Part shown: one piece after another, positions 31,802-51,108 of the stretch | How the letters are laid out: each line of letters begins with the position of its first letter | Position numbering within the stretch: position 1 is the first letter of the stretch | Assembly (NCBI RefSeq): GCF_009649225.1 | Contig: NZ_WJPP01000001.1 | Location: forward strand, 496,001 to 560,000 | Length of the DNA stretch: 64,000 nucleotides | Direction of reading: 5' to 3' | Source of the DNA: Spiribacter salilacus | GTDB taxonomy: Bacteria; Pseudomonadota; Gammaproteobacteria; Nitrococcales; Nitrococcaceae | The notes under the pieces: generated by a model | The model's database searches: none | Told to the model about the DNA's origin: nothing | Seen by the model: only the letters and a program-made list of their open reading frames with translations | Position numbers and translations under genes: made by a program

Positions 31802-32027
31802 AACCTGCCCTATATTCGGACGAGGGGTGGCACTGTCCGCTCCGAAATGAAGTATCTACCTGCGATCTTGCAGCGTTTCGCCAATCTAAGCCTTGACGGC
31901 AGTAACAGGCACTCAAAAAAATCACACTGGCATACTGGGAAAGGACCAGCTCCGATCCCATTTCCTCGGATCGGATGCGAGCAGTGCCCCGCCCCCCTAG
32001 CTCGCAGGAAACACGGTCGATTCTCAC
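31794..32027 (-). pseudogene. Decayed Vsr-like mismatch endonuclease gene
   Basis: A 77-codon frame starts with GTG at 32027, overlapping the dcm stop by 4 nt (GTGA), and ends 8 nt inside the MORC-like gene. Near its start ARIRSEEMGSELVL resembles the N-terminal SRIRSKD..PEL of Vsr. A little later YASVIFLSACYC resembles the Vsr strand AVIFVHGCFWH. The segment between them, which in Vsr holds the catalytic aspartate (LPGKPDxVF), is missing. MORC-type cassettes often place vsr directly after the cytosine methyltransferase, so position supports the reading. It is probably non-functional. Confidence 0.45.
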
Positions 32028-33574
32028 TTAATCTCTCCGGCTCTATCAAGAATATCTGCGATTATTTCGGCGATCTGCCTTGCGAGATACGGCGGCACCG
32101 CATTGCCTACTTGGTGATACTGAGATGTTCTTGGTCCCTCGAATCTATAATTATCCGGAAAAGTTTGCAGCCGCGCGGCTTCTCTGACTGTCAAGCTCCG
32201 ACATTGCATAGGATCGTAGTGAATAAAATAGTGCCCATCTTTAGAGATATGAGAAGTGATAGTAGTAGCAGGCTGCTTAGGAAGCTGAACCCGAAATCGA
32301 TCTGAGAACATCTTCCCAGCTCTGCCGTCGCCAACATTTGCATGGTTAGGCAGTAAAAAAGGTGGAAAATCAGCTAACTTGGGACTCCTGCCGGTAACTG
32401 ATGCGAATGAAGCTGCGAAGGCATAACGGCGAAGATCGGACGGCATATGAGAGCGCGAGTGATGACTATCCAATCTTGAAAGACGCGCATCGTAGATGCT
32501 CTCGAAGACACTATGCGAACAAAAAGGCCGCGCTGGATATCGAGTAGAGGATTTTTCCAAGGGGACTACGGGCGCGGGATCGCAAGCAGCAAGCGTCGCA
32601 AAAAGCTCCTCCGCGTAGCAATTTCCCCTTAGCTCTTTGTTGATCCGCTGTAAATCTAGCGAGCCGACTGCTACCCGCCAACTCTCATAACTATCTTCAC
32701 TCTTTGAAATTCCACTCCGAATTTTTGGCAAGTTGCCAATCGTCTCTTCTAGTGTTGGCGATTTGTGAGGCCTTAACTTTTTAGGACGGACTGCAATATC
32801 GTCTCTGATACCCACAATAAACATTCTGTGGCGGGCTTGCGGCACTCCATATTCTTCCGCCCTAACGAGAAAAAGGCGCGGATCGACGCAGAACCCTGGA
32901 AGCTCCTCTTCCGCGAGCGAATAAAGCTTATAGCCTAGGCCATTTGGCGAAATGCCAAGGGCACCTTCCGGTTCAGTTAGGTCAGATATAATGCGATTAA
33001 TTACAAGGTCGCCATTTACCCGGGCTGACAGCAGGCCCTTCACGTTCTCCATTACAAATACTGGTGGACCGTGATCAACAATGATTCGCAAGTATTCCCT
33101 ATAGAGAAAGTGGCGTTCGTCGCTCTCAAACGCTGGATCACCTTTCATCCGTGACCTACCCACCAAAGAGTATGCTTGGCAAGGAGGCCCACCGACCAAC
33201 GCCCACTTTTTTTCGTTTCCAAGCTTATTGGTGATGAGCGCACGAACTTGGCGATGATTTTCAGCGCCAAGGGACAACCTTATCGCCGACTGATCCGCCC
33301 GAGCCTTTTCTTTGGGATGCCGCGAATAAAGCTCATTAAGGGTGATATGACCGTTTAAATATCGATAATAATCTTCAGGAAACTCATCGCTTTCAAACAC
33401 TCTAAGAAAATGGCGCAAAAGGAGTGTTCTGTGAGCAAACTTATCTTGTTCAATGGCGACAATACTTTCAAAGTATGAACGCTCTTTCCCATTCCTTTGC
33501 AATGAAGCGAAGCCTTCCCCAAGGCCACCTGGGCCAGCAAACACATCAACCAAAGGATAGGGCCGCTTCTTCAC
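32024..33574 (-). CDS. DNA (cytosine-5) methyltransferase
   Basis: The 516-residue protein has the ordered motifs of C5 methyltransferases: motif I VDVFAGPGGLGEGF (8-22), motif IV GGPPCQAYSLVG with catalytic Cys132, motif VI FVMENVKGLL with Glu176, motif VIII ARHRMFIVGIRDD, and motifs IX-X near the end (RSLTVREAARLQTFPDNY, YHQVGNAVPP). It would protect host DNA for the MORC/Z1/DUF4420 system downstream. The target recognition region (about 250-420) gives no readable specificity. It is the first gene of the operon. Confidence 0.93.
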   Translation of the reverse strand: MKKRPYPLVDVFAGPGGLGEGFASLQRNGKERSYFESIVAIEQDKFAHRTLLLRHFLRVFESDEFPEDYYRYLNGHITLNELYSRHPKEKARADQSAIRLSLGAENHRQVRALITNKLGNEKKWALVGGPPCQAYSLVGRSRMKGDPAFESDERHFLYREYLRIIVDHGPPVFVMENVKGLLSARVNGDLVINRIISDLTEPEGALGISPNGLGYKLYSLAEEELPGFCVDPRLFLVRAEEYGVPQARHRMFIVGIRDDIAVRPKKLRPHKSPTLEETIGNLPKIRSGISKSEDSYESWRVAVGSLDLQRINKELRGNCYAEELFATLAACDPAPVVPLEKSSTRYPARPFCSHSVFESIYDARLSRLDSHHSRSHMPSDLRRYAFAASFASVTGRSPKLADFPPFLLPNHANVGDGRAGKMFSDRFRVQLPKQPATTITSHISKDGHYFIHYDPMQCRSLTVREAARLQTFPDNYRFEGPRTSQYHQVGNAVPPYLARQIAEIIADILDRAGEIK

Positions 33575-34554: not shown

Positions 34555-36069
34555 ATGGATGATAATGTTTTGGATGAAAACGAAATACTAACGAAGGCAA
34601 ATCATCTTGTTATCGAAGGGCTTCGCCAAGCAGCGATTCTCCTGCTTCAGCAAAACTTAGAACTCCATCCCCACTCTACCGCACTCCTTACCGCACTCGG
34701 TCATGTTTATCTGCTTGAGAATCAACCGACGAAAGCCCTTAATCATTTCAACAAATCACTCAAGGCCAGTCAGGCGGCCAATGATTTTACTGATGAAGAC
34801 TTAGAGTTTATAAATACGCAAGCTGAGCAGAGTAAAGAAGTCGATTATTCACCGCACGACGACGCTGTATCGGATGCAAGCGACGCTGATTCAGGAAAAG
34901 TCCAACAATTATCACTGCGGCCGAAATTATCTCTTTCATCACCAAGAAATACTAGCCAAACGGAAAGACCAGCCAAGCATCAGGTCAAAATCAAGTACCG
35001 ACAGCGTAAGTATCTCAATACGAATAACAGCACCCCTAGGTCTAGGGCGACAGGTTCACTAGGTGAGGGGTCGCCTGCTACGGAACCAGTAATACCGAAA
35101 GACCAGTTACAAAGGGAGGCCACTACTTTCACAACTCCCAACTCGCGTCATGTCAGCTCTCACACCGACAATAAGGAGCCTGATGTTCAAGCGGTCGAGC
35201 AATCATTAGATGATCTCTACTATGAAGAATTACAACCAAACGCCGATTTTGCTGTGCCAGAAAACGACGATGCTGCTTACAGTCTCTTCGACTACCTTCC
35301 GGATTCCCTCGATAATCAGGAGATCGATGAATTCGCGTGGGATGAATACGAAGACCTTGATGAGTTTGATGAAGAAGCTAATCGCGGGGACACCGAACAC
35401 ATCCTACCGACTGATTACGTTGGCCGCGAGAGACGTGCCCTTCAAGTCGCCACAGAAGTCATTGCAAACTGCGATTGGCATCCCTGTTCAATTGAGCTAC
35501 TTCAAAAGGTTTTTGTTGAGAATGGATGGAATGCGACCCGCGTAGCCATTGAGCGAGAAATTAGTAAAGGCATGATCCCGGATGAGCTTATGCTCGCTAG
35601 GGCGATTCGCAATTATTGGTTCAATAATGATCGCTATTGGATAACTTTCGCTCGGATCAAGAGCAACGCGCTCTACATGGAAGCCACCGCGGCCTACTGC
35701 AACATAAGTTGGGTGGATGCACTGCGTGTCATACGATGTTTCCCAGCGATTCCCGCAGTCGAGGAAGTAATAACTCTCATTGAGGATTTGTACGAATGGT
35801 GGTATGCCGATCAAAGCCTATGCCGCAGCTTCAAAACCTTTCTAAGGTTTCTTCAATACCGAACCGGGTCAGTGCGGGGCGCGCTCTCCGGTGAAAGCGT
35901 TTTCAGTTTTCATGGATGGGCAGACGAAAACATTGGCTCTGAAAATATTACTCTATGCCACTACAACACGCCCGCACGCCACTGTTTACAGGAACTCGGC
36001 ATAAAACTTCCACTAAGTGAACCTCCGCCACTTAGGGGCATGAGAAAAAGAAAGGAATCAGAAGAATGA
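34555..36069 (+). CDS. TPR-like acidic protein paired with a SNF2 helicase
   Basis: The protein has 504 residues. The first ATG is at 34555, 14 bases after AAGGAGG. Residues about 1-85 look like two tetratricopeptide-type helical pairs (GLRQAAILLLQQNLELHPHS, GHVYLLENQPTKALNHFNKS). The middle is low-complexity and very acidic (EEANRGD and EFAWDEYEDLDEFDEE). The C-terminal 200 residues are better folded, with WHPCSIELLQKVFVENGWNA and WYADQSLCRSFKTFLRF. I recognise no catalytic motif. It overlaps the helicase gene by 4 nt (ATGA), so the two act together, perhaps as adaptor and motor. Confidence 0.75.
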   Translation: MDDNVLDENEILTKANHLVIEGLRQAAILLLQQNLELHPHSTALLTALGHVYLLENQPTKALNHFNKSLKASQAANDFTDEDLEFINTQAEQSKEVDYSPHDDAVSDASDADSGKVQQLSLRPKLSLSSPRNTSQTERPAKHQVKIKYRQRKYLNTNNSTPRSRATGSLGEGSPATEPVIPKDQLQREATTFTTPNSRHVSSHTDNKEPDVQAVEQSLDDLYYEELQPNADFAVPENDDAAYSLFDYLPDSLDNQEIDEFAWDEYEDLDEFDEEANRGDTEHILPTDYVGRERRALQVATEVIANCDWHPCSIELLQKVFVENGWNATRVAIEREISKGMIPDELMLARAIRNYWFNNDRYWITFARIKSNALYMEATAAYCNISWVDALRVIRCFPAIPAVEEVITLIEDLYEWWYADQSLCRSFKTFLRFLQYRTGSVRGALSGESVFSFHGWADENIGSENITLCHYNTPARHCLQELGIKLPLSEPPPLRGMRKRKESEE

Positions 36070-38891
36070 CTAAAAACCGTACCCCACTGCTCCCGGTGCG
36101 CCACGCTTGGGTAAAACAAACCCTTTCCGATCAGACCGAACGCGTAGGTAGAGTGGAGTCCGCAATTGATCGAGGGAATCAAGTCGATGTTACTGTCCAT
36201 TGGCAAGGTGAAAACCGGAAATCTGTGGTCCCACTTTCTAGTCTGCGCTGCGGGTTCCGCCCAATGATGGACGTGCAAGACGTACCTGCAAGTCGAACAC
36301 GAAAGACGATGGGAGAAGGTATTGTCCTAAAGACTCGCACCTTGGGTGGCCGTGACCAAGTACTGGTTGATTTCCCGAGAGTAGGCAAACAACTCTGGCT
36401 CCCTTATGAAACTTTAAAGCAGATTAAGGGCAGCAAACACCGATTCATCCTCGGTGAAACAGGCCCCGCAGATAGTGCAGAGCGGTTCCGACTAAAATCG
36501 CTGGCGCATGCTCTGGAAATGTGGAACGAAAATACAGGATCCCTTTCACATTTGGAGATCGACCCACTTCCCCACCAAATCCACTTAGTTCACCATATCT
36601 TGGCCTCTGGAAACCTCAATTGGTTGATCGCTGATGACGTCGGGCTTGGCAAGACTATCGAGACCGGCATGCTTTTGGCTGCGCTTAAGCAGCGGGATAG
36701 TCTTAATAGAGTGCTGCTAGTTACTCCCGCTGGATTAACCAAACAATGGCAAGACGAGCTTAACCACAAGTTCAAAATGGGCGATTTTTTAATTTATGGT
36801 GATGACTTCCAGATAAATGAGCCGCGCCACTGGAAGATGTTTGACTATGTTATCGCGTCAATGGATAGGCTGAAGGATGATCGTCACCTAGCAGCATTGG
36901 AGCAGGCCGGTGGTTGGGATTTGGTTGTTTTCGACGAGGCGCATCGCCTTAGTCGGCGACAGTACGGTATGAAACTTGATGCCTCACAGCGGTTCCAGTT
37001 AGCTGCCCAACTGCGGCGAAAAACAGATGCGATGGTCCTGCTAACAGCTACGCCACATCAAGGGATGCAAGACAAATTCCAGGCACTATTGGAGCTGCTC
37101 CGGCCCGAGCTGACCGATAAAATCAACAGTTTAAGGAACAATCCGGAAATTATCGGAGATATGGTATTCCGAAATAATAAAGCCGATGTAACTGATGTGG
37201 ACGGCAACTTCATTTTCAATGGCAAAACCACGTCAGCAATGGAAGTGTCGGTCTCTCAGGCGGCGAAAGTATTCGATAACACCCTACAAGCGTATCTTCG
37301 TAAAGGCTATGAAGCGAGCGCCAAACTTGGCGTCAAAGGCAATGCTATCGGCTTTGTAATGACGGTGTACCGCAAGCTCGCTGCCTCAAGTGCTGCGGCG
37401 ATCCACAATGCGCTGATTAACCGTAAATTGCGACTTCAAACTCAGGCCAACATAGAGCCGATGGGTAATTATGCAGAAAAAGATCAGCGGTTTATTGGCG
37501 AATGGGAAGAACAGCTGCAGACCGAAGCGGCACAGTTCTTTGATGGTGAGCTGGATCTACTCGATCAACTAATCAGCGAGGCAGAACGCCTGCGCGACAA
37601 TGACCGTAAGCTTCAGCTTTTTCTCGATGAATTAATCGAAGCCATCCGCGCCGATAATCCAGATCAAAAAGTGCTAATTTTTTCCGAATATCGAACCACC
37701 CAAACTTATATCAAGTCAGCTCTAGAGGGTCGTTTTGGCGCCGGCTGTGTGGAGCAAATTAACGGTTCTATGCCTCACCACTTGAGGCATGCCGCGATTG
37801 CCCGATTTGAGGAATCAGCCCAATTTCTGATCTCCACAGAAGCTGGTGGCGAGGGCATTAATTTGCAGCGCAACTGTCACATCATGATCAACTACGACCT
37901 ACCATGGAATCCAATGCGTCTGGTGCAGCGCATTGGCCGCCTGTATCGCTATGGGCAAAGGAATCGAGTAGTTGTATTCAATATCCACTCTCCAGACACA
38001 GCCGACGAACAAATTATGGAAATGATGTATAGCCGTATTGAACAGGTGGTTACTGATCTAGCTGGGGTTAGTCCTGAATTTGATTCTCAGCTACACGACG
38101 ATATCCTTGGCGAGATTGCAGATCTAATTGACGTTTCGCAGATTCTGGAAGAGGCGACCGTAGCAGGAATCGATCGTACCGAAGAGCGGATCAACACAGC
38201 CCTAGCCCTCGCTAAAGAGGCCACAGAAAAACAGCACGAGCTATTTGCGTATGCTGCGAGCTTTAATCCCAACGAGACCCGAAATGAGCTGCGTATTACG
38301 AGCGAGCACAGTACGGCTTTCGTTCAGGGTATGTTCCAGCAACTCGATGTTGAGATAGTAGACACCAGTCACGACGGCAGACTCTGGCATATCCGTATCC
38401 CTGAGACAATGCAAAATGCCCTAGGTAGCACCCGAACCCGCTATGAGGTAACACTAGACCGTATCTTAGCCATCAAGCGGCCCAACACGCATATTCTTGA
38501 TCTGGATTCGCACATAATGCGTTACCTATTACAAGAAGCGAAAAGCTACGACTTCATGGGCTTGAGTGCAGTAGTACGCAATTTACCGAACAGCGCGGCA
38601 CTGACCACTAGTATTTTACGCTGGCAGAATGACCAAGGGCACCGCAGGCGCCAAGAATACGCAGTATTTGGAATAACCGAAGACGACCAAGTGCAAATTA
38701 ATCCGGAATCTTTTGTAGACTGGCTAAAACGGCCGGCCAACACCGGCACCGTCGAAATAGACCGAGACCAAAACAGACGTTGGTTTCTAGCAGCAGAAAA
38801 AGCAGCAGATCGGCGACTAGCGGAAGTAAGCAATCGGCATCTCCATCCTGAAAACATGCAGTGGGTTTCGGGTGCATGGGTGGGAAGATGA
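36066..38891 (+). CDS. SNF2-family (HepA/RapA-like, DrmD-like) helicase
   Basis: The 941-residue protein contains SF2/SNF2 motifs: I DDVGLGKTIETGMLL, II VVFDEAHRLSRR, III LLTATPHQG, and V-VI AGGEGINLQR with QRIGRLYRYGQ. The N-terminal 150 residues resemble SH3-like/KOW-like modules (VDVTVHWQGENRKSVVP). Helicases of this class occur as DrmD in class 1 DISARM and in other defence loci. Here it is separated from the DrmA/DrmB genes by 5 kb of insertion sequences and lies on the opposite strand, so membership in that system is doubtful. With its TPR partner it may be an independent two-gene module. Confidence 0.88.
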   Translation: MTKNRTPLLPVRHAWVKQTLSDQTERVGRVESAIDRGNQVDVTVHWQGENRKSVVPLSSLRCGFRPMMDVQDVPASRTRKTMGEGIVLKTRTLGGRDQVLVDFPRVGKQLWLPYETLKQIKGSKHRFILGETGPADSAERFRLKSLAHALEMWNENTGSLSHLEIDPLPHQIHLVHHILASGNLNWLIADDVGLGKTIETGMLLAALKQRDSLNRVLLVTPAGLTKQWQDELNHKFKMGDFLIYGDDFQINEPRHWKMFDYVIASMDRLKDDRHLAALEQAGGWDLVVFDEAHRLSRRQYGMKLDASQRFQLAAQLRRKTDAMVLLTATPHQGMQDKFQALLELLRPELTDKINSLRNNPEIIGDMVFRNNKADVTDVDGNFIFNGKTTSAMEVSVSQAAKVFDNTLQAYLRKGYEASAKLGVKGNAIGFVMTVYRKLAASSAAAIHNALINRKLRLQTQANIEPMGNYAEKDQRFIGEWEEQLQTEAAQFFDGELDLLDQLISEAERLRDNDRKLQLFLDELIEAIRADNPDQKVLIFSEYRTTQTYIKSALEGRFGAGCVEQINGSMPHHLRHAAIARFEESAQFLISTEAGGEGINLQRNCHIMINYDLPWNPMRLVQRIGRLYRYGQRNRVVVFNIHSPDTADEQIMEMMYSRIEQVVTDLAGVSPEFDSQLHDDILGEIADLIDVSQILEEATVAGIDRTEERINTALALAKEATEKQHELFAYAASFNPNETRNELRITSEHSTAFVQGMFQQLDVEIVDTSHDGRLWHIRIPETMQNALGSTRTRYEVTLDRILAIKRPNTHILDLDSHIMRYLLQEAKSYDFMGLSAVVRNLPNSAALTTSILRWQNDQGHRRRQEYAVFGITEDDQVQINPESFVDWLKRPANTGTVEIDRDQNRRWFLAAEKAADRRLAEVSNRHLHPENMQWVSGAWVGR

Positions 38892-39256: not shown

Positions 39257-40135
39257 TTAGGACCTCGCCTCCATGCCTTTGTTGGACAAGTATTCTCTAT
39301 GCCGCGTGACGGTTAGATTAAGAAACTTTGGGTCAACGCCCGCGAGTAATGCTTTGCGATCATCTTTTGAGATTTGGCTGCAATGAAAGGTAGCGACAGA
39401 GTCATCAATTTCAGAGTCAACAAGAAGTTCACCGGTTGAGGCAATAGCGATATATTGAAGATCTAGCGCACGATGGCAGTACTTGCAAAGGCATATACCA
39501 TTAGCAGGGTTTGCTCTGTTCTTCACATCCGTGGCGTAGGGGCTCAGATGTGCAGCCTCCACAAGACCAGGGAGACATGATCCGCAAACAACGCACCGAC
39601 TGTCACTTCGCTTCATGACGGTGTCAGTGAAGCCTTTTATGGCTAAGCGAGACTTGGTCTTGCTCCAGCTGTCAGGAACGGAGAAGTCCTCCGTTGAGAC
39701 GGAAGGAAGAAGATGACGAAGATCTGCCAAGTCGAGAATCGCTTGATACATAGATTCACCGAGTGATGGCATCGACTGTGACCAGCCGAGCAGGTTGACA
39801 TCCGTAATACCAAGCTGAGCACGATTTCGCTTTCCCTCTTTGCTTGTTGGCGAGACGGAAAGAGGCGTTGTGAACCTCACAACATCTGTGAGATGGGCTG
39901 TGTATACCACTCTAACTTTGCGTGTTCGCAGTGCTTCTTGTTCAGTTGGCTTTCTTTCCGAAAGTTGTTTTACAGTTCCTGTAGCTGTGAATGAGTATCC
40001 TTGTGTCTTGTCGAGGTATAGAAAAGTGTCCCCCTTCTGGACCCGAACTGAGTGAGTGTTGTCATACACGTACTTCAGCCCTGGCTCGTCGGGATACAAA
40101 TCCTGCTCCGCAACCTTGAATATCCAATATGCCAT
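39257..40135 (-). CDS. HNH endonuclease with an N-terminal EVE/PUA-like domain
   Basis: The protein has 292 residues, with AAAGGATTAG before the start. The first 110 residues (MAYWIFKVAEQDLYPDE, VQKGDTFLYLDKTQGYSFTA) look like an EVE/PUA-like fold that can read modified bases. The C-terminal HNH has SRCVVCGSCLPGLVEAAHL, then NGICLCKYCHRALDL: paired Cys-x2-Cys zinc ligands, the AHL histidine and the CHRALD histidine. The combination of a modified-base reader with HNH is that of type IV (modification-dependent) restriction enzymes. It is flanked by IS fragments on both sides, so it may have moved recently. The domain call at the N-terminus is tentative. Confidence 0.8.
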   Translation of the reverse strand: MAYWIFKVAEQDLYPDEPGLKYVYDNTHSVRVQKGDTFLYLDKTQGYSFTATGTVKQLSERKPTEQEALRTRKVRVVYTAHLTDVVRFTTPLSVSPTSKEGKRNRAQLGITDVNLLGWSQSMPSLGESMYQAILDLADLRHLLPSVSTEDFSVPDSWSKTKSRLAIKGFTDTVMKRSDSRCVVCGSCLPGLVEAAHLSPYATDVKNRANPANGICLCKYCHRALDLQYIAIASTGELLVDSEIDDSVATFHCSQISKDDRKALLAGVDPKFLNLTVTRHREYLSNKGMEARS

Positions 40136-42505: not shown

Positions 42506-44182
42506 TTAAAAGCCTTTTAACAATTCATCAGCAACCGCAGAAGACGACACAACGCATAAATATGCTCGGGCCCTTGAGAAAGCGACGTATGCGAGTTCAC
42601 GACGACCCATCTCGTCGCCATCCACGACTAACACCACCGCGGACCGTTCTAGCCCCTTGAAGCGACGCACAGTATCAACAACAACATCCTCTAACGTCAT
42701 AGTGTCAGCATCGGTAAGTGGAATGTTTGTGCCAATGGTTTTTTCTAAGAAGCTTTCTATAACAGCGGGGCTATTAGCAAGTACAGCTATGTCACCGGGC
42801 GCCACATCCTCCTTGAAAATAAGCTTTCGAAGCTCTCGGTAAGCAGATTCAATCATCGTGGCGGAATCCTCAGCGCTAACCCAAGATACCTCCAAACCAT
42901 CCGGCCCATCTGCGAAGATTTCCGGACCTGAGTAATAGGCTGAGGCCGCTTTGTGGATATTTTTGGTATTTCGAAGATTTCTTGAGAGCCGGACAGGAAC
43001 CAAGCTGAAATCACAAACACGATCTGCGGACCTCTGATAAACACGTTGATTGCTGTCCATAAAAACCCGAATGCGACCATCGGGCACTAAACATGCGTCC
43101 AATGCTATCCACCACTCGTCCAAGAAATCCTGACCTTCATCTACGATTACGGTTTCCCATCGCAGACTAGGCTTTTGTTCCATTGCGTCACATAGCGCAT
43201 TCGGCAAAGAGTTTTCATACAGGCTTACATCATTGATATCAGAGGGTATCGAGATGCCGACTTGATGCGAAGCCCAACCACATAACGTATGAAATCCGGC
43301 GACTGATAAATGTTCGATGCCGCTCAATCTTCTTTCAAAGTAATTGGCTAACGGTTTATTAAAACAGGTCAATAGGGTCTTGCGCCCTGCCCTCGCGGAT
43401 CTCAGAGCTTCTTCCATCGCGACAATTGTCTTGCCAGTGCCTGCACCACCTTGGAGTAAAGCCCGAGGAATATCTTCAATCACCTCGAGAATCTGATACT
43501 GCAATGGTTCGAGGACGCGGAATATCGCCTCGGTGTCGGCGAGCTCGGTGCCAATAGAAAAACTCAGTGTGAAAGGACGCGCCAGAAGAGATTCCAATGC
43601 ACTAATGCCGTCTCGGCCTAGTGGTTCGCAATTATCGGGGCGGCTACCAGCTTTGATACGGCTAGTGACCCATCCTTTTAAGTCACCATGAAACTGGCGT
43701 GAGCAGCAAAAGATCTCAGCCGGTCGATCCGCACCCAAAGCCCCAGAAGGCGAACCAGCGCTTGGGAAGATCACCCCGTGAACGGCGTGAATAAAGCGAC
43801 TTGGCCACTTTTTTGAATTGTTCATCTTTTTGAGGATTTCGTGCTTAGCGCTGCGCGCTTGTGCAACAGGATCCTTAATCTTGTGGACAAACCCGCCGTG
43901 ATCCGTGCTGCGCCACTGGCCGTCCATCGGGTCGAACGAGATTTCCCTGCCGCCCTTGACTTCGATTGTTAGGATGCCGTGCTCGGGATGAGCGATCAGG
44001 AAATCGCATTCACCATCCTTCTCGTTTCCGAGTCTATCGGTGCCCAGCCACGGGCTGGAGTAGAAGACATGGAAGCTGTCGTCGAGCACCTCGGCAAGGC
44101 GATCGTAGACGCGAACCTCTGCCTTTCGCCGCGGATCGTCCACGATCGAACGAGGAAGTTTTTTAGGCCAGAGCACTGCCAT
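42506..44182 (-). CDS. NERD-domain nuclease fused to SF1 helicase
   Basis: The protein has 558 residues. Residues about 18-100 are a NERD (nuclease-related) domain with the PD-(D/E)XK-like triad visible as ECDFLIAHPEHGILTIEVKGG (Asp60, Glu74, Lys76). From about 225 a UvrD/Rep-like helicase follows: Walker A GGAGTGKTIVAMEEA near 247, VIVDEGQDFLDEWW, MDSNQRVYQRS and the late motif VDTVRRFKGLERSAVVLVV with YVAFSRARAYLCV. It is the last gene of the DrmA/DrmB operon and shares one nucleotide with the DrmB gene. NERD may supply the nuclease role that PLD-type DrmC has in standard DISARM. Confidence 0.88.
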   Translation of the reverse strand: MAVLWPKKLPRSIVDDPRRKAEVRVYDRLAEVLDDSFHVFYSSPWLGTDRLGNEKDGECDFLIAHPEHGILTIEVKGGREISFDPMDGQWRSTDHGGFVHKIKDPVAQARSAKHEILKKMNNSKKWPSRFIHAVHGVIFPSAGSPSGALGADRPAEIFCCSRQFHGDLKGWVTSRIKAGSRPDNCEPLGRDGISALESLLARPFTLSFSIGTELADTEAIFRVLEPLQYQILEVIEDIPRALLQGGAGTGKTIVAMEEALRSARAGRKTLLTCFNKPLANYFERRLSGIEHLSVAGFHTLCGWASHQVGISIPSDINDVSLYENSLPNALCDAMEQKPSLRWETVIVDEGQDFLDEWWIALDACLVPDGRIRVFMDSNQRVYQRSADRVCDFSLVPVRLSRNLRNTKNIHKAASAYYSGPEIFADGPDGLEVSWVSAEDSATMIESAYRELRKLIFKEDVAPGDIAVLANSPAVIESFLEKTIGTNIPLTDADTMTLEDVVVDTVRRFKGLERSAVVLVVDGDEMGRRELAYVAFSRARAYLCVVSSSAVADELLKGF

Positions 44183-46041
44183 CAGCTTATCCGAAGCATC
44201 TCTTCGAAGTAGCCGAGACCCGAGCCCGTCCCGTCGCCCGTGAGGAGCGCACGGTCGAGGAAGCTGTTGAACGCTTCACACGATGTCTCCGGGGCAAGAC
44301 AGCAGGCGTGGCACACCGAGTGGGAGTAGCTATTCTCGGCTCCCATCATGTCGGTGATGCAGAGTGGGTCCGAGGAGCACCACTCAATCGCGTCGATTGC
44401 CCGTTGGAGGATGCCAGCAATGCGCTCCGCCCTCCCCTGCCGTTCGAGCCCTCCAAGCGTCCCATCCGAGTCGGGAGTCGCGGTATAGATGAGAAGCCCC
44501 GCCATCTGCTCCTCGCCAGTACCGGCATAGATCCGCTCCTGGAGAGATGCCGAGGAATAGCCACATTCGAGAGTAAGCTGACGCATGAGAGCGTGCGCAA
44601 GGGTGTGGCAGAGCATATATCGCGGGGTGATCGCCTGAGGTCGTTTCGCGTCTTCTCCGTACCGTTCCTTCCAATCGGCCTGATGCCGCGCCTCGCACTC
44701 GGAAACGCGCGCCACGACGTCTGGCCGGTTTTCCCAGCTCAACAGGCGCTCCTCATTCAGGGCGAGAAAGATGCCCTCGCCGCGGACCTCGATGGCTGGC
44801 AACCATTCAAGAGGCTCCTTGGAGAGACGAGCAACCTCTGGCGAGTCTGGATCGCCTGGTGGGTTGATGCGGGTAAAGCCCTTGATGGCTCGCACCTCTC
44901 TCAGTCGTACGACCCTTACCACCCGAAAAATCCACGGGGCGATTTCCGCGGCGACGGCTTCCCTGCGTGTCTCAAAATCGATTTCGAGCGTTCGACTGCG
45001 GCTAGGTTCCATAACGAACTGCCGATACTCTGCTGGTCTCAAATCATCGGTCTGTAGCTGTCCATAAGATGTGAGACGAGCGCGAATTGCCTCTGCAAGT
45101 TCGGCAGGCGACATTTCAAGTTCGTCTAAGGCGCTTTTGAGCTCTCCCTTTGCGAGAGTACCTATGAAACTCGCCAGCTCGGAATGATCGTCGAGATTTA
45201 TGAGCGTACTCCACCAGTTCCCCAATGCTTCCTGCAGACTGTCAGACCACGGTGGAATACTCAGCGCGGACTCCGTTACAGCGAAATACAGGTTCGACGC
45301 GCCTCTTTGAACGGCATACTGCTCCTTACCGCAGCTCTCATTGCCATCGGCCAGCCATGGTCGGTGGCCGCGACATTTGGGGGCGCGTTCCCAAGTCTTC
45401 TTGGAAAAGACGCCATCCATTGATCGGCGTGCACCACACTTCGGGCAGCTGAGGATCAGACCAGCGAGGCCCGGCCTCTCGGACCGCAGGAAAAGCCCCG
45501 GATGGCGATCCGTGTTTTCTCGTTTCGCCACTGGGCATTCGGGCTTGTGTCCGACCCACCAGTCCCAAGGAAATTCGTCAACATGCCCATGCTTGCATGC
45601 CATGACGAAGCGGACGGGAATGACAAAAACCTTGCTGTCGCCATGTGCCTTTTCGGTGCACGTCGGGCAGTAACGGTAGGCCTTTCCAGGGTCGTTCTTC
45701 CATCGGCGCTCCGGCTTGATGATATCGCAGCTGGGGCATTGCAGCCATTTCGGGAAGCGCACGGCAACAAGGCGCCGAGTATCCGGATCGTCATCCTTTC
45801 CCCGCTCGAGCGTGACAGGGGGCGTTCTGAATCCCTTGACGCCGAGCTTTTTCTGGAGGCGCGTCTCGCGGATGACCTGCGGGTGCGCCAGTCCCGCCGG
45901 AGGAAAGGACCGATCCCATTCCTCGAGCCCTGCAGCGATGCCAGAGACGGCTCCTCCACCCGCCCTGAAGTCCACGACGGAACCTGGACCAAAGGTAGAA
46001 ACGACTGCGCTTCGCCGCAGCTCCTGCAACTCATTCTTCAT
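44182..46041 (-). CDS. drmB: DrmB-like (DUF1998) protein
   Basis: The 619-residue protein begins RRSAVVSTFGPGSVVDFRAGGG, the typical DrmB start. It has four cysteine pairs suited to zinc (CPSCDIIKP with YCPTC; CKHGHVDEFPWDWW with PEC; CPKCGARRS; SVCHACCLAPETSCEAF) and the DUF1998 helix MLCHTLAHALMRQLTLECGYS with SLQERIY. In DISARM, DrmB forms the core complex with the DrmA helicase and holds back phage DNA. It overlaps the DrmA gene by 11 nt. The coding DNA is GC-rich compared with the IS region next door. Confidence 0.92.
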   Translation of the reverse strand: MKNELQELRRSAVVSTFGPGSVVDFRAGGGAVSGIAAGLEEWDRSFPPAGLAHPQVIRETRLQKKLGVKGFRTPPVTLERGKDDDPDTRRLVAVRFPKWLQCPSCDIIKPERRWKNDPGKAYRYCPTCTEKAHGDSKVFVIPVRFVMACKHGHVDEFPWDWWVGHKPECPVAKRENTDRHPGLFLRSERPGLAGLILSCPKCGARRSMDGVFSKKTWERAPKCRGHRPWLADGNESCGKEQYAVQRGASNLYFAVTESALSIPPWSDSLQEALGNWWSTLINLDDHSELASFIGTLAKGELKSALDELEMSPAELAEAIRARLTSYGQLQTDDLRPAEYRQFVMEPSRSRTLEIDFETRREAVAAEIAPWIFRVVRVVRLREVRAIKGFTRINPPGDPDSPEVARLSKEPLEWLPAIEVRGEGIFLALNEERLLSWENRPDVVARVSECEARHQADWKERYGEDAKRPQAITPRYMLCHTLAHALMRQLTLECGYSSASLQERIYAGTGEEQMAGLLIYTATPDSDGTLGGLERQGRAERIAGILQRAIDAIEWCSSDPLCITDMMGAENSYSHSVCHACCLAPETSCEAFNSFLDRALLTGDGTGSGLGYFEEMLRIS

Positions 46042-49000
46042 CCGTATCGTCCTTTGCCCTCAGTACTGGGGCCATCCTGAATGGGGTTCCGGCTTCGACG
46101 GTCCGCATGGAGTTGAGGGTAGGCCAAGCGGCGCCAGCATCGCGGCCGGCAGCTCGACGAGCGGCAGCGCGCTCGGCGCTCTGCAGAAGGGATTTTTCCC
46201 CCTTGTAGTCGCTCCAGTAGACCGTCGGCGATCTTGCTCGCCATTTATTAAGGAGGAGCCGTTCGAGTTCATCCCGCACGGCCGTCTCTTCTGGATCGAT
46301 GCGTTTTGCCCGCTCTACAATGAGGTCGATGAGATCCATTGCCTCGTCTTCCGCCTCGTCTTCCATTCGAGGGGAGTCGAGCATGTCCGGAACCAGATGA
46401 CGTACTGCCGCCACAAGAGCGGCATGCAGCGCCCTGTCGCGAGCACGCGATGCGAAGGGTGTGACGCTTGTCGCCTCAACGTCCCTGTACAATGTGCGGT
46501 GCCAGCTGCAGAACGTCTCGAAATGCGAGCGATCCCTTGCCTTGGCGTTGTTGAGGACCGAAACGACCAAGCCGCTCACGTCACCGCGCCCGACGCGGCT
46601 AGTTGACTGGATGTACTCTGCGATCGTCTTTGGTTGCCCGTTGACCAGCATCAGTCCCAGTCGGGAGATGTCGACGCCGACACTCACCATGTTAGTCGCT
46701 AGCACCGCATCGACTGCGCCAGGAGCCCCAATCTTGATATCGAGAAGGTCGAGCATCTCGCGGATCTCCTCCTGCGTCCGGCGAGAGGTGAGTTCTTCGA
46801 CGTTGCTGAGAGGGCGATTCTCTTCGGACCGAGCGTTCGCGTAGAGCGCGATACTATCGGTGACGTCATCCTGCATCAGCACAAGGGCGCCGCCTAGCTC
46901 CCGAAGGGAGTTGAAGTAGCCGACAAGTGTCCAGTAGGCGTCCCGACGGACATCATCGCTGAACGCTCCGAAGGCGGTCTGCAGCAAGGAGCCAGCCACT
47001 GCCTGAAGGGTGAACTTCGCGGATCGGCCCGCTGTCGTGACCCCGAGATATCGCCGTCCTTTGGCGCTGGGGCGGCGGTCGCGCACCGCAAACCCTGTAT
47101 CGTCGTAGTCGATCGCCGGCGGCGGAAACTGGAAGGCCTCACGATCGAAAAGCGCTAGAACCTGTTCCGGAGCCCTGCGGATCGTAGCTGTCGAGCCAAT
47201 GACCTTGGCGCGATGTCCGCGCGCGGCGAACATCAAGTCGAAAGCGGATTCATAAACGCCAGCGATTGTCCCGAGCGGACCCGAAATGAGATGAAGCTCG
47301 TCTTGGAGGATCAGGTCAGGAGGGGACCCTTCCGAAACGGCAAACAGGCTGTTGGTTCGCTTTTCACGGACAACCTGAGCGAACTTGTCTGCTGTTCCAA
47401 TGATCAGCGTCGGACGATTTTCATAGACATCCTCGTCCACGGTATGGACCGGGAGCAGCCCGTACATCGCGCATTCAGGTTTCTCGCAGGAAACCTCCAC
47501 AGGAGATGTCGGACTTGCTATCGACCAGTTCAGCTTCGACTCGCAGGCAGGGCAACGCGCGAGTTGCTTTGGCGAAGCCACTTCCTGCGAACGCAGCACG
47601 ATGGAAGCGTAAGCGGCTGTCCGTTTGTTGGGGGTAGCATCGCCACCAACCCACAGGCCTATCGAGAAAGGCTCTCCGCCCTGAAGCGGCAATCCCTCGG
47701 GAGCGGCTACCCGACCAGAGCGGATGGCCTCAAGGGCCACGATCATTGCGGCGGAACGCGCAAACTGCTGGGTTGTAAGAAGGCGAAGCGTGTAGCGCAT
47801 TAGGGCGCAAACGCCGCTGTGGTCATCGGCATTGTCCGAGAGGCGGCGATAGACGGCGATACACGCGATCAGCGCCAGATAAGCCTCGGTCTTGCCGCCA
47901 CCCGTTGGGAACCAGAGCAGGTCCATGACGCCTCGGTGCTCGTGATCCCGGATCACCGACGACGGAGCGCTCAGAAGCAGAAAGCCCAGCTGGAACGGGC
48001 GCCAGCGGAGAGGACCTTGACGGCTCTTCGACTTGTCCCACGAGTGCTGCAGGTGCATGGCGAAGTTTGCCAGCTGGAACGCTCTCCGCAGCCTCGGGTT
48101 GGCGCCGAGTTCATCAACCGAGACTCGCATGCGATCCAGGGCCTTGTTGCACTGAATGAGATGCGCCTTGGCAACATGCTTCAATGCAGGGGCAACGTCC
48201 CCGGCATCTTCCAACCGCTTCCTCTGCGTCTCAATCCACTCCGCATAGGCGTCGCAGAAGGTGACAAGTCCGTTCCTGAGGGTTGTCGAGTCAGCGGAGG
48301 CCAGCGCTTCGGCCAGAAGAGGATCGAATGTCCCAGGCTCACCTCCCAGTTCTGCGAAGTATGGATGCCCATTGGGATCCACCCCCTCGACAATGGCCGA
48401 GGGCAGCCATGTCGTCGCGACCCACCGAGCATGGGGCTGTGAGCCTGCCGAAGCCTCTGCCTCTTCCCACTCGGCCGAACATACGTGGCCGACGGCCAAC
48501 TCCGCGACGTTTCTGTATAGAAGCGCTCCGCTCTCCTCGTCGGTAATCGCGTCCGTTTCGCCGTCAGTCGTCGGCTTTAAAGGAGCTGCGCGCCTAGGAG
48601 GCTTCGGGACCAGTAAAGTACCCTCGCAGGGCTCGATGCGTAGCGAGGTCTGAAAAAGAGAGGCCGCCTCGATCTCATTTCGGTCCTGCTCCGGAACCAC
48701 CGAATTGACCAGAGCGAGGGTCGCCAAGATGGTATCCGCAGCCTTGATGCATCTGACACTGAGGGAAACTTCAGGAAGCCCATCGCAGTGCTCGGCAAGT
48801 TGGATCTCGCGCGTCGGCCCGGGCGGCAATTCGAGGGACGAGATTTCGACAGTGTGAGCTCGCCGAACCCACACATCTCCATGATCGCGTTTCTCGGCCC
48901 GATAGGTCCCGAAGCTGCATACGACGCGTACCTTCGCAACACCATCTGCGTTTGCGCTGAAGGATATGCCAGCGACTGAGGGCTTCTGGATCGACCCGGT

Positions 49001-49228
49001 TCGGACCGCATCGCTTTCGCCATCGCTCTCCTCCACACCGCCCGCGCCCGCTGTGCCAAGGCGATCGTCATCCTCCCCTGACATGGCAGTTCGCTGCGGC
49101 CACAAGATGCCGGTCAGGTAGACATCGGAAGGCCGAGCCGGGAGTTCCTCGTCTTCGGTCCGAGGACCGACAAGATCCTCTGCGAGCCTGAGCGCAACAA
49201 TGTCCCTTTCCTCTGATCTGTCCAGCAT
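46031..49228 (-). CDS. drmA: DrmA-like DISARM helicase
   Basis: The protein has 1065 residues. The start is placed at the ATG at 49228, 5 nt after the UvrD-like gene stop, giving MLDRSEERDIVALRLAEDLVGP, the usual DrmA opening; a frame open to 49309 overlaps the upstream gene. Helicase motifs: FPTGGGKTEAYLAL (about residue 441), LILQDELHLISGPLGT, IGSTATIRRA, ATNMVSVGVDISRLGLM and QSTSRVGRG. A zinc-like CPACESKL...CEKPEC lies between. It is the DNA-translocating half of the DISARM core. High confidence in family; the operon lacks the usual other members. Confidence 0.93.
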   Translation of the reverse strand: MLDRSEERDIVALRLAEDLVGPRTEDEELPARPSDVYLTGILWPQRTAMSGEDDDRLGTAGAGGVEESDGESDAVRTGSIQKPSVAGISFSANADGVAKVRVVCSFGTYRAEKRDHGDVWVRRAHTVEISSLELPPGPTREIQLAEHCDGLPEVSLSVRCIKAADTILATLALVNSVVPEQDRNEIEAASLFQTSLRIEPCEGTLLVPKPPRRAAPLKPTTDGETDAITDEESGALLYRNVAELAVGHVCSAEWEEAEASAGSQPHARWVATTWLPSAIVEGVDPNGHPYFAELGGEPGTFDPLLAEALASADSTTLRNGLVTFCDAYAEWIETQRKRLEDAGDVAPALKHVAKAHLIQCNKALDRMRVSVDELGANPRLRRAFQLANFAMHLQHSWDKSKSRQGPLRWRPFQLGFLLLSAPSSVIRDHEHRGVMDLLWFPTGGGKTEAYLALIACIAVYRRLSDNADDHSGVCALMRYTLRLLTTQQFARSAAMIVALEAIRSGRVAAPEGLPLQGGEPFSIGLWVGGDATPNKRTAAYASIVLRSQEVASPKQLARCPACESKLNWSIASPTSPVEVSCEKPECAMYGLLPVHTVDEDVYENRPTLIIGTADKFAQVVREKRTNSLFAVSEGSPPDLILQDELHLISGPLGTIAGVYESAFDLMFAARGHRAKVIGSTATIRRAPEQVLALFDREAFQFPPPAIDYDDTGFAVRDRRPSAKGRRYLGVTTAGRSAKFTLQAVAGSLLQTAFGAFSDDVRRDAYWTLVGYFNSLRELGGALVLMQDDVTDSIALYANARSEENRPLSNVEELTSRRTQEEIREMLDLLDIKIGAPGAVDAVLATNMVSVGVDISRLGLMLVNGQPKTIAEYIQSTSRVGRGDVSGLVVSVLNNAKARDRSHFETFCSWHRTLYRDVEATSVTPFASRARDRALHAALVAAVRHLVPDMLDSPRMEDEAEDEAMDLIDLIVERAKRIDPEETAVRDELERLLLNKWRARSPTVYWSDYKGEKSLLQSAERAAARRAAGRDAGAAWPTLNSMRTVEAGTPFRMAPVLRAKDDTDEE

Positions 49229-49233
49229 GAGCG

Positions 49234-51108
49234 CTATTTCCGGCGAAAGAAGAAGAATGAAGGGAAGGCCGTAATTCTCGGCGCAAGCATGAAGCCAGAG
49301 GTGGCCCAAGGTTCGTTGAGCGCCTCTAGGTCACTGTCATCGGGACTCAGCACAATCGTCGCGCTGCCTTGGCCCCGGACATGATTCACGTAGCCTGGAG
49401 GCTTGTGGCTGTGCCTCTGCTTCCTTTTCTCGAGTATCTCCCACAGGTCAAATGTCAGATTACGTGAAATGACCCCGACACAGGGACCTCCGTCGCCGAC
49501 ACGGATCCTGTAGCACCAATAGAGTTCGGGATCCGCTTCCAGCTTGTAAGTGGTGACCACATCCGCGGCCTTTGCGAGGAAAGCCTGCCCGGTTTTCGCA
49601 TCGGCCGCGCTGAACTCGCTGCGGCCGACAAGGCCGCGAGCGGTGATGTCGCCGTCGCGACCGACTTCAACCATCGTGGACTTGCCGTTCCTCGCGGACC
49701 GATGAACCCGGCCAGATGCGAGCGTTGACGCTCGAAAAGCGTTGCTCTCGCCAACGATGAGGGAGGTGCGCGCGCGCGTGGCCCCGACGAAAAGGACCCT
49801 TGCTTCCTCTGCCTCGTCCTCGACCGTCTCGAATTCTGCGCCGTTCGGAAGCAGAAACACAACGTTGCTGGCCTCACGTCCCTTGCTGGCGTGGATTGTT
49901 CCGACGATCGGTCCCTGAAGGCCGTACTCGGGAAGGGTCAGTTCCACCGGAGGACGGGCCTGGCCCAGCCGCTTTCTGAGCTTCTGCATATCGACCGAGC
50001 CATCTCTGCGCCCTGCAACGCGCAAGAGGTGCTGCCATGCTTCGGCCGGCCCATAGTGCGGCGCAGTCTTGTTTTCGATCCGCGCAGCCCAGAGACCGAG
50101 GAAATGCCGCTCGGCCACGTGAGGCTCGACGAAATCCGAGAAGCAGATTGCAAGCCACGCCGGGAGCGTCGCTCCGTATCCTGACAGGCGCAGCCGATGA
50201 GGGAGGTCACAGAACTGCGCCGCCATCAGTACTTCGCCGCGGGTTCTGAAGAGCAGAAGATCGTCGCTTGTGAAGTCGGCGACCTTCATCTGGGTCCACT
50301 TCAAGCCCTTACTGTCTGCAAGCTCCCGGATTCTTTCTGCCGTCTCGGCGTGAAAGCCGTCGCGATGCCTATTCTTGTCGAGGACATCCTTCCGCAGATC
50401 GGAGAAGATCTTTTTCAGTCCCGGCGACGAAGTGCGGTAAATCTCCTTCAGGATCAACGTCTCGAAGCCCAGAGATCTTTGCGCACGCAGCCTTTCGAGA
50501 AGCGCTTCCCCTAGCTTGGCAGCGTCGCCGCTGCGATGTCCGAGGCTGTCGTCCGAAAACCCATAGATGGCCTGTGCCTCGTCAGCGAAGACTGTGACAC
50601 CGCAATCAGACGGCAACCTCTTCACCAGCTCCTCGATCAGGTCTGCCCGCTGCCCTACGAGGTCCTGTGCCTCGTCGATTACGACATGCTCGACCTGTGA
50701 CAGTTCATCGGCCACATCGTCATCAAACTTCAGGAGATCGATGACCCGGGCGATGTTCTCCTCATAGGACCCGGTCAGCCTCGCATTCGGGTCGTGCCCG
50801 GAGTGGATGGACCATGCGTGAGAATCGATCGTCGCTATCCTGATCGCGAAGGAGGCATCGCCGATGTAGGAATGCAACCGCGCGCGAATTTCTGCTACTG
50901 CGGTCCGGGTAAAGCTGATCATCCACGTGTTGCTGGGCTCGACATCCGCCGCACTTGTTAGATACGCAAGCCGCGCGCAAGCAACAGCTGTCTTGCCTGT
51001 TCCTGGCCCGGCTTCTACGATAATTCTGGCCTCAGCTACGGTTTCGATTACCTGACGCTGCTCTGCATCCCACTCTGTAACCACTGACGCCTGCTTGACC
51101 GCTATCAT
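49234..51108 (-). CDS. UvrD-like SF1 helicase of the DISARM-like operon
   Basis: The protein has 624 residues. The start is set at the ATG at 51108 with GGAG upstream; a frame to 51165 is possible. SF1 motifs are complete: IIVEAGPGTGKTAVACARLA (Walker A), SFTRTAVAEIRARL, HVVIDEAQDLVGQRAD, VFADEAQAIYGFSD, GTIHASKGREASNVVFLL and LFVGATRARTSLIVG. The C-terminal 120 residues are an uncharacterised domain (LYWCYRIRVGDGGPCVGVIS). It is the first gene of the operon, 5 nt before drmA. A second SF1 helicase (with NERD) closes the operon, which is unusual for DISARM. Confidence 0.88.
   Translation of the reverse strand: MIAVKQASVVTEWDAEQRQVIETVAEARIIVEAGPGTGKTAVACARLAYLTSAADVEPSNTWMISFTRTAVAEIRARLHSYIGDASFAIRIATIDSHAWSIHSGHDPNARLTGSYEENIARVIDLLKFDDDVADELSQVEHVVIDEAQDLVGQRADLIEELVKRLPSDCGVTVFADEAQAIYGFSDDSLGHRSGDAAKLGEALLERLRAQRSLGFETLILKEIYRTSSPGLKKIFSDLRKDVLDKNRHRDGFHAETAERIRELADSKGLKWTQMKVADFTSDDLLLFRTRGEVLMAAQFCDLPHRLRLSGYGATLPAWLAICFSDFVEPHVAERHFLGLWAARIENKTAPHYGPAEAWQHLLRVAGRRDGSVDMQKLRKRLGQARPPVELTLPEYGLQGPIVGTIHASKGREASNVVFLLPNGAEFETVEDEAEEARVLFVGATRARTSLIVGESNAFRASTLASGRVHRSARNGKSTMVEVGRDGDITARGLVGRSEFSAADAKTGQAFLAKAADVVTTYKLEADPELYWCYRIRVGDGGPCVGVISRNLTFDLWEILEKRKQRHSHKPPGYVNHVRGQGSATIVLSPDDSDLEALNEPWATSGFMLAPRITAFPSFFFFRRK

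What the first reader, a model, noticed from the sequence alone, without database searches (positions are those of the whole stretch)
42506..51108. DISARM-like operon with two SF1 helicases and a NERD nuclease but no DrmC or methyltransferase
DrmA and DrmB are clear, but the usual PLD protein DrmC and a DNA methyltransferase are missing. In their place are a UvrD-like helicase upstream and a NERD-SF1 helicase downstream, all tightly spaced. Without a methyltransferase the system must tell self from non-self by another way, or borrow the dcm at 32 kb. It may be a separate DrmAB-based system type.
Basis: partly seen in the sequence, partly recalled or inferred. Interest (0 to 1): 0.72.

Follow-up and report, generated by a model that had tools for sequence, protein, structure and literature searches.

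The report
DISARM-like defence operon with NERD nuclease
Four tightly packed genes appear to form a phage-defence module that keeps the DNA-sensing core of the known DISARM system but carries a different nuclease-helicase in place of the usual nuclease; in a sample of other bacteria this alternative is about as common as classical DISARM, and it offers a candidate for the missing DNA-cutting part of such systems.

Summary
On the minus strand, 51108-42506, lie UvrD-like SF1 helicase, DrmA, DrmB and NERD-SF1 helicase, nearly back to back, without DrmC, DrmE or methyltransferase. They match Shinella as one 8.5-kb block ending at the operon's edges, under purifying selection; the NERD gene is older-diverged and lower in GC, as if exchanged. 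The layout occurs in 23 distinct loci from several phyla. Among 52 surveyed DrmAB loci, 15 have DrmC, 19 NERD, none both; DrmC loci carry DrmMI-type methyltransferases (13 of 15), NERD loci cytosine methyltransferases (14 of 19, all 14 of the kind with NERD upstream). In two DrmA trees DrmC and NERD loci lie on opposite sides of one branch. So this belongs to a widespread NERD/SF1 division of DrmAB systems, outside the two DISARM definitions I could read. The dcm at 32 kb belongs to an MZA system, yet is DrmMII-like and the genome's only PF00145 match; some close relatives have such a gene right after NERD, where the window has IS remnants. Lending in trans is plausible, unproven. Function, and NERD as effector, are inferred. 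New variant of a known kind.

The parts
49234..51108 (-). UvrD-like SF1 helicase (624 aa from ATG 51108; the TTG ORF extends to 51165), first gene
   Evidence: Pfam UvrD-helicase 1.1e-24; Walker A lysine and DExQD invariant in 22 of 22 full-length relatives; AlphaFold2 pLDDT 86.2, best PDB fold matches PcrA/UvrD/Rep
46031..49228 (-). DrmA: SF2 helicase of the YprA/DISARM family, compact form (1065 aa)
   Evidence: PADLOC DrmA 1.2e-192; PDB 7s9v 1.1e-123; V1071 (TTG numbering) aligns with Serratia V1296; dN/dS 0.13 against Shinella
44182..46041 (-). DrmB (MZB/DUF1998 protein, 619 aa)
   Evidence: NCBIfam DrmB_fam 522 bits, cut-off 240; PDB 7s9v_B 3.4e-89
42506..44182 (-). NERD nuclease domain fused to an SF1 helicase (558 aa), last gene; proposed effector in place of DrmC
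   Evidence: Pfam NERD 2.9e-10; PADLOC RTasNERD-Hel 5.9e-55; E22, D60, E74, K76, Walker A lysine and DExQD invariant in 22 of 22; AlphaFold2 pLDDT 86.8
42543..51072 (-). Block shared with Shinella sp. PSBB067 (L022), 87.6% over 8532 bp, coextensive with the four genes
   Evidence: blastn, single match
32024..33574 (-). m5C methyltransferase heading the MZA genes, DrmMII-like; candidate source of methylation in trans, not part of the operon
   Evidence: Pfam PF00145 2e-44; best PADLOC match DrmMII 282 bits, followed by MzaB-E on the same strand; only PF00145 match of the genome
40201..42400 (.). Broken IS transposase pieces directly downstream of the operon, where relatives L022, L030, L036 carry an m5C methyltransferase and Vsr
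   Evidence: ORFs, sequence, relatives; read as IS pieces from the sequence and recall, no family search made

Best explanation
The four genes are one anti-phage module of the DrmAB (DISARM) superfamily. DrmAB loads on unprotected single-stranded or 5'-ended phage DNA (inferred from the Serratia DrmAB structure), the UvrD-like helicase extends or channels the unwound DNA, and the NERD-SF1 protein cuts it, taking the place of DrmC. Self is spared by autoinhibited DrmAB and, possibly, by m5C methylation from a cytosine methyltransferase that need not lie in the operon; in relatives it often lies nearby, here the only PF00145 candidate is that of the MZA system at 32 kb. Shown: gene content, conservation, one shared block with Shinella, DrmC/NERD exclusion in the sample, intact catalytic residues.
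For: Homology to DrmA/DrmB with a solved structure. The proposed methylation-sensing valine is conserved: Serratia SMREVES (V1296) against window SMRTVEA. Same four-gene order in 23 distinct loci of several phyla. One 8.5-kb block shared with Shinella that stops at the operon's edges, dN/dS 0.10-0.16. NERD and both SF1 catalytic residues invariant in 22 of 22 full-length relatives. Survey: DrmC 15, NERD 19, both 0, neither 18 of 52 (Fisher p 3e-4); DrmC and NERD loci on opposite sides of one branch, SH-aLRT 100. m5C gene within 8 kb in 14 of 19 NERD loci against 1 of 15 DrmC loci, in 8 of 12 window-type loci with full flanks, and somewhere in the genome in 31 of 32 NERD-type genomes (18 of 18 surveyed, 12 of 13 seeded window-type, and the window's) against 8 of 14 DrmC-only genomes.
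Against: No experiment. The DrmC/NERD split is one change on the tree, so the Fisher p overstates independence. All 14 surveyed NERD loci with m5C have NERD upstream of DrmA; of the 4 surveyed window-type loci none has m5C, though three of them have little flank. 13 of 23 window-type loci, the window included, show no m5C gene within 8 kb. 10 of 14 control genomes have PF00145 anyway, and one window-type genome (L107) shows none. The sensor match is one residue; the N-terminal piece with the trigger-loop region found nothing on its own. The NERD gene has another history than its neighbours: dS 1.47 against 0.23-0.54 and GC 50.9% against 59.5-60.7%, while in Shinella it has 61.2%, which argues against a strictly fixed quartet. 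The best PADLOC match of the NERD protein is a partner of reverse transcriptases, so it may be a general accessory.
Confidence: 0.7

Rival explanations
1. It is a degraded DISARM class 2 locus that lost DrmC, DrmE and DrmMII when the IS elements came in; what remains works poorly or not at all.
For: IS pieces lie directly downstream, and close relatives L022, L030 and L036 have an m5C methyltransferase and Vsr there. DrmE occurs upstream of NERD in other DrmAB loci.
Against: DrmC was found in 0 of 26 loci of this layout. SF1 is not a DrmE remnant (hhalign probability 0.1%). All four genes are open and under purifying selection, and the Shinella match stops at the NERD gene.
Confidence: 0.1
2. 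The system needs no methylation at all: DrmAB and the SF1 helicases recognise exposed 5' ends or replication forks of phage DNA, and the m5C genes nearby are ordinary restriction-modification neighbours of a defence island.
For: Nearby m5C genes vary in side, strand and partners and often come with Vsr and restriction genes; in Shinella an N6_N4 methylase and ResIII pair lies upstream too. The block shared with Shinella carries no methyltransferase. None of the 4 surveyed window-type loci shows m5C nearby. In Serratia DrmAB binds ssDNA and 5' overhangs, not dsDNA (PMC9142583, passages).
Against: The m5C link of NERD loci is strong against DrmC loci (14 of 19 against 1 of 15), and 31 of 32 NERD-type genomes hold an m5C gene. 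The sensor valine is conserved.
Confidence: 0.45
3. The UvrD-like and NERD-SF1 genes are independent defence genes (Gabija-like or RT-associated) that happen to sit beside a DrmAB pair.
For: Top PADLOC matches are GajB for SF1 and RTasNERD-Hel for the NERD protein. The NERD gene has its own GC and divergence.
Against: Overlapping or near-touching genes, the same order in 23 distinct loci, one shared block with Shinella. NERD sits directly upstream of DrmA or directly downstream of DrmB in 18 of 19 surveyed NERD loci, never with DrmC.
Confidence: 0.1

Closest known systems
DISARM class 2 (PADLOC paper: DrmA, DrmB, DrmC, DrmE, DrmMII)
   Same: DrmA and DrmB; link to a DrmMII-like cytosine methyltransferase in part of the relatives
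   Different: No DrmC, no DrmE; SF1 helicase upstream, NERD-SF1 downstream; methyltransferase not in the operon
DISARM class 1 (DrmD, DrmMI, DrmA, DrmB, DrmC; Serratia structure PDB 7s9v/7s9w)
   Same: DrmA and DrmB families, sensor valine
   Different: DrmA about 260 aa shorter, beginning near Serratia residue 155 by alignment offset, so most of the N-terminal part that Bell et al. call EVE-like has no counterpart (inferred); no DrmMI, no DrmC; opposite side of the DrmA tree
Loci with DrmE, NERD-SF1, DrmA, DrmB and m5C (L150, L151, L153, L137)
   Same: DrmAB plus NERD-SF1, no DrmC found, m5C nearby
   Different: NERD-SF1 lies upstream of DrmA, DrmE before it; no UvrD-like SF1 in the operon
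TALON (Bell et al. 2025, PMC12458937)
   Same: YprA-family helicase together with a NERD nuclease
   Different: TALON's helicase is ARMADA-like, with TPR-CSD and TBP genes; here DrmA and DrmB are separate and DISARM-like
NERD-helicase of reverse-transcriptase systems (PADLOC RTasNERD-Hel)
   Same: Same NERD plus SF1 protein family (185 bits)
   Different: No reverse transcriptase among the four genes; coupled to DrmAB
Gabija GajB
   Same: UvrD-like SF1 helicase
   Different: No GajA among the four genes; partner is DrmAB

Membership tests
DISARM class 1 | DrmA and DrmB | tested here: met
   (DrmA under NCBI's equivalog cut-off: 833 of 950 bits)
DISARM class 1 | DrmC (PLD nuclease) | tested here: not met
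   none in the operon; the genome's PLDc_2 matches lie in two other proteins, frames 468 and 722 aa
DISARM class 1 | DrmMI adenine methyltransferase in the operon | tested here: not met
   the only N6_Mtase match of the genome is on another contig, no N6_N4_Mtase match; other adenine-methylase families not searched
DISARM class 1 | DrmD SNF2 helicase | tested here: inconclusive
   a BrxHII/DrmD-like SNF2 helicase lies at 36066-38891 on the other strand, outside the operon
DISARM class 2 | DrmC | tested here: not met
DISARM class 2 | DrmE | tested here: not met
   no Pfam DrmE match in the four genes; SF1 against a DrmE profile 0.1%
DISARM class 2 | DrmMII cytosine methyltransferase | tested here: inconclusive
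   not in the operon; a DrmMII-like gene 8.9 kb away heads the MZA genes
DrmAB core | SF2 motifs and the DNA-contacting valine of DrmA | tested here: met
   GGGKT, DELH and V1071 invariant in six DrmA; V1071 aligns with Serratia V1296
DrmAB core | Autoinhibitory trigger loop | tested here: inconclusive
   an acidic stretch stands near the place by alignment offset, but the N-terminal piece alone gave no match
TALON | ARMADA-like YprA helicase with TPR-CSD and TBP genes | tested here: not met
   DISARM-like DrmA with separate DrmB; no TPR-CSD or TBP match among the four genes
Anti-phage system | Protection against phage | not testable with these tools
   needs experiment

The most novel reading that the evidence does not exclude
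DrmAB defence consists of two divisions that parted early: one uses the PLD nuclease DrmC and mostly adenine methylation (classical DISARM), the other, about as common, uses NERD-SF1 helicase-nucleases and further SF1 helicases and leans on cytosine methylation supplied from inside or outside the operon. Many 'DISARM loci without DrmC' would be this second division, with a nuclease of its own that is exchanged between operons.
Probability: 0.5. Interest if true: 0.75.

Novelty: new variant of a known kind. Interest (0 to 1): 0.6.

Why it matters
Bravo et al. [quoted passage not shown] A NERD-SF1 gene that stands in for DrmC in 19 of 52 surveyed DrmAB loci makes that directly testable. The operon is also a natural case of a DISARM-like module without its own methyltransferase, which allows a clean test of how DrmAB tells self from non-self. 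DrmA of this kind scores under NCBI's DrmA cut-off here and is named only 'helicase-related protein' or 'DNA helicase' in the records L023-L028, so annotation may tend to miss it.

Tried and rejected
Rejected: SF1 as a diverged DrmE (hhalign 0.1%); a DrmC elsewhere in the genome; dcm remnants between the IS pieces: the Shinella dcm matches the window only at the MZA gene and its Vsr nowhere (tblastn, E up to 1e-3); membership in TALON (PMC12458937 section 5). A regex count suggested a missing DExQ motif in 5 of 23 SF1 proteins; the alignment shows it in 22 of 22 full-length ones (L045, truncated, left out; NERD proteins over 640 aa cut to their last 640). A flank-restricted recount returned 0 loci because its limits exceeded the fetched flanks; it is not used. 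The promoter scan found one weak match, fewer than chance. The C-terminal domain of SF1 (about residues 490-624, well ordered in the model) was not identified. Ofir et al. 2018 is not held, so class 2 is taken from the PADLOC paper.

Rows dropped: L152, L163, L166 (no DrmA or DrmB found in the piece); from the 52 also the loci of start genomes: window, L135, L159, L170 (the start genome of the L067 phylum was not refetched). Truncated L115 and L162 stay among 'neither'. For the genome-wide m5C count I gave 13 of 21 seeded window-type loci (left out: four plasmid records, three duplicates of surveyed loci, truncated L045), and G473, which holds both kinds of locus, counts in neither group. Surveyed flanks are limited: medians about 5.3 kb upstream and 8.9 kb downstream, alike for DrmC and NERD loci, so 'within 8 kb' is partly cut off.

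Full report
Observation. The window carries, on the minus strand, UvrD-like SF1 helicase (49234-51108), DrmA (46031-49228), DrmB (44182-46041) and a NERD-SF1 helicase (42506-44182), all open. From the coordinates the junctions are 5 bp apart, 11 bp overlapping and 1 bp overlapping. Family searches identify each, and the PDB holds DrmA and DrmB homologues (7s9v). Neither DrmC nor a methyltransferase is in the operon.

The dcm and the rest of the genome. The cytosine methyltransferase at 32024-33574 is followed on the same strand by MzaB, MzaC (Z1), MzaD (DUF4420) and MzaE (AIPR) matches, so it most likely belongs to an MZA system. It is the only PF00145 match of the genome, and its best PADLOC match is DrmMII (282 bits). 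PLDc_2 matches lie in two other proteins, with frames of 468 and 722 aa (which enzymes these are was not tested). One N6_Mtase match on another contig and no N6_N4_Mtase match were found; other adenine-methylase families were not searched.

A shared block. Shinella sp. PSBB067 (plasmid record NZ_CP069303.1) holds the same four genes. At DNA level the 27-kb Shinella piece and the 64-kb window share one block, window 51072-42543, 87.6% over 8532 bp, and nothing else at that setting. The block starts 36 bp inside the first ATG and ends 37 bp before the last base of the operon. dN/dS is 0.16, 0.13, 0.11 and 0.10 for SF1, DrmA, DrmB and NERD. The block is a mosaic: dS is 0.54, 0.23, 0.28 and 1.47, and GC is 59.5, 60.7 and 59.5% for SF1, DrmA and DrmB but 50.9% for NERD, against 61.2% for the Shinella NERD gene; the neighbouring stretches of the window have 50.8 and 52.7%, its first 20 kb 56.1%. 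So SF1-DrmA-DrmB look recently acquired, and the NERD gene looks exchanged for a more distant copy. By inference the window's genome is not alphaproteobacterial: L118 (G283, 'same phylum' only) has the same DrmA as L043, Frigidibacter albus.

It recurs. Adding plasmid and survey loci, 26 loci have an SF1 gene directly upstream of DrmA and a NERD gene directly downstream of DrmB; three pairs are the same locus fetched twice, leaving 23. By record title they include Alphaproteobacteria, Lysobacter, Balneolia, Bryobacterales, Prochlorococcus, Bacillota and Gastranaerophilales, and L134 from the Actinomycetota draw. None shows DrmC. In 22 full-length copies the NERD residues E22, D60, E74, K76, and the Walker A lysine and DExQD of both SF1 proteins, are invariant. 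Reading E22-D60-E74-x-K76 as a PD-(D/E)xK site is from knowledge of that fold.

The wider picture. I searched DrmB (NF038324) in 397 genomes of the window's phylum, 296 of L063's, 299 of L067's and 247 of L106's phylum: over the cut-off in 11, 24, 7 and 15 genomes, start genomes included. Regions were fetched and annotated with HMMs built here. Of 59 pieces 56 had DrmA and DrmB; without four start-genome loci, 52: DrmC within 3 kb 15, NERD within 4 kb 19, both 0, neither 18. DrmC loci: DrmMI-type within 6 kb 13 of 15, m5C within 8 kb 1 of 15. NERD loci: 0 of 19 and 14 of 19. Of the 18 'neither', 4 have DrmMI and 4 an adjacent SF1 gene. Fisher p is 3e-4 for the exclusion and 1e-4 for m5C, but loci are related, so these are not independent trials. 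All 14 m5C-positive NERD loci have NERD upstream of DrmA; the 4 surveyed loci of the window's layout have none, three of them with about 2-2.6 kb held on one side. For the window's layout the link rests on the seeded loci: 10 of 23, or 8 of the 12 with 8 kb on both sides.

Trees. In a FastTree of 133 DrmA all 18 DrmC loci fall in one 25-row group (support 99) without any NERD locus. A quick IQ-TREE run on 63 rows puts 18 DrmC and 27 NERD rows on opposite sides of one branch, SH-aLRT 100; 18 rows with neither were not counted. In one search the window's DrmA groups with L022, L030 and L031. NERD stands upstream of DrmA in some groups and downstream of DrmB in others, which suggests that the link survived rearrangement. 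Of 11 DrmE-profile hits 10 lie in loci with NERD upstream of DrmA; Pfam DrmE_C is found in L150 and L151. So DrmE occurs here without DrmC. Many actinomycete loci instead have a ~1600-aa protein; the one scanned (L063) has a weak sacsin match and a helicase end.

Methylation. V1296 of Serratia DrmA, proposed as methylation sensor (PMC9142583, passages), aligns with window V1071 (TTG numbering), invariant in six DrmA. In L022, L030 and L036 an m5C methyltransferase is the next gene after NERD, on the opposite strand, with Vsr beyond; in L022 it too matches DrmMII best. Over whole genomes PF00145 is present in 18 of 18 surveyed NERD-type genomes, 12 of 13 seeded window-type genomes and the window's own, against 8 of 14 DrmC-only genomes (p 0.002); 10 of 14 control genomes have it anyway (31 of 32 against 10 of 14, p 0.02). 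This is compatible with protection in trans without proving it.

Mechanism. Most likely DrmAB senses unprotected ends or ssDNA, SF1 helicases process it and NERD cuts it. The models are confident (pLDDT 86.2 and 86.8). Foldseek places SF1 nearest PcrA/UvrD/Rep and the NERD protein nearest human SLFN11/SLFN14 and UvrD, at modest TM-scores (0.40-0.49 for the ten best of each), perhaps because domains are placed differently.

Literature. Full-text searches with DISARM, DrmA, DrmB, DrmC, DrmE, DrmMII, DrmAB, NERD, UvrD, DUF1998, DISARM-like and nuclease-helicase in various sets listed no paper that I recognised as describing DrmAB with NERD-SF1; only titles, abstract starts and the passages named were seen. 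Bell et al. 2025 (PMC12458937: abstract, sections 5 and 8, passages) describe DISARM as typically having DrmC, and name NERD for TALON; figures and supplements were not seen. The Shield paper (PMC10270631, passages) reports about 70 ShdA homologues (RmuC-domain proteins) in DISARM-like operons. PADLOC requires DrmC in both DISARM types (PMC9252829, passage). Ofir et al. 2018 is not held, so the claim of novelty is limited to this library.

Noticed in passing
24648-33574: MZA-type system: m5C methyltransferase, HATPase (MzaB), Z1 (MzaC), DUF4420 (MzaD), AIPR (MzaE), all on the minus strand.
   Followed up: partly
34516-38891: Plus-strand pair: 517-aa protein without a family match (TPR-like by eye) and a 941-aa SNF2 helicase like BrxHI/BrxHII and DrmD (321 bits).
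   Followed up: no
39257-40135: HNH_2 endonuclease of 292 aa; its N-terminus looks EVE-like by eye (untested), which would suggest a modified-base-dependent nuclease.
   Followed up: no
L024, L025, L031, L035, L036, L037, L040, L043 (upstream of SF1): A divergent pair, DpdE/SNF2-like helicase plus a ~1000-aa protein, lies directly upstream of the SF1-DrmA-DrmB operon in eight loci; the L025 copy of the second protein has no Pfam or PADLOC match.
   Followed up: partly
L063:3286-8049 and relatives: Proteins of about 1550-1650 aa precede SF1-DrmA-DrmB in many actinomycete loci; the L063 copy has a weak sacsin/TmtA-like N-terminus and a helicase end.
   Followed up: partly
L065:6161-7597 and relatives: An Hsp70-like protein lies directly upstream of the SF1 gene in L065; a profile from it has 9 hits in the loci held.
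   Followed up: no
window 42506-44182 against L022: NERD gene: dS 1.47 and GC 50.9% against dS 0.23-0.54 and GC 59.5-60.7% for the other three genes: possible exchange of the effector.
   Followed up: partly
L145 and L127: One genome (G473) carries both a DrmC-type and a NERD-type DrmAB locus, at separate places.
   Followed up: no
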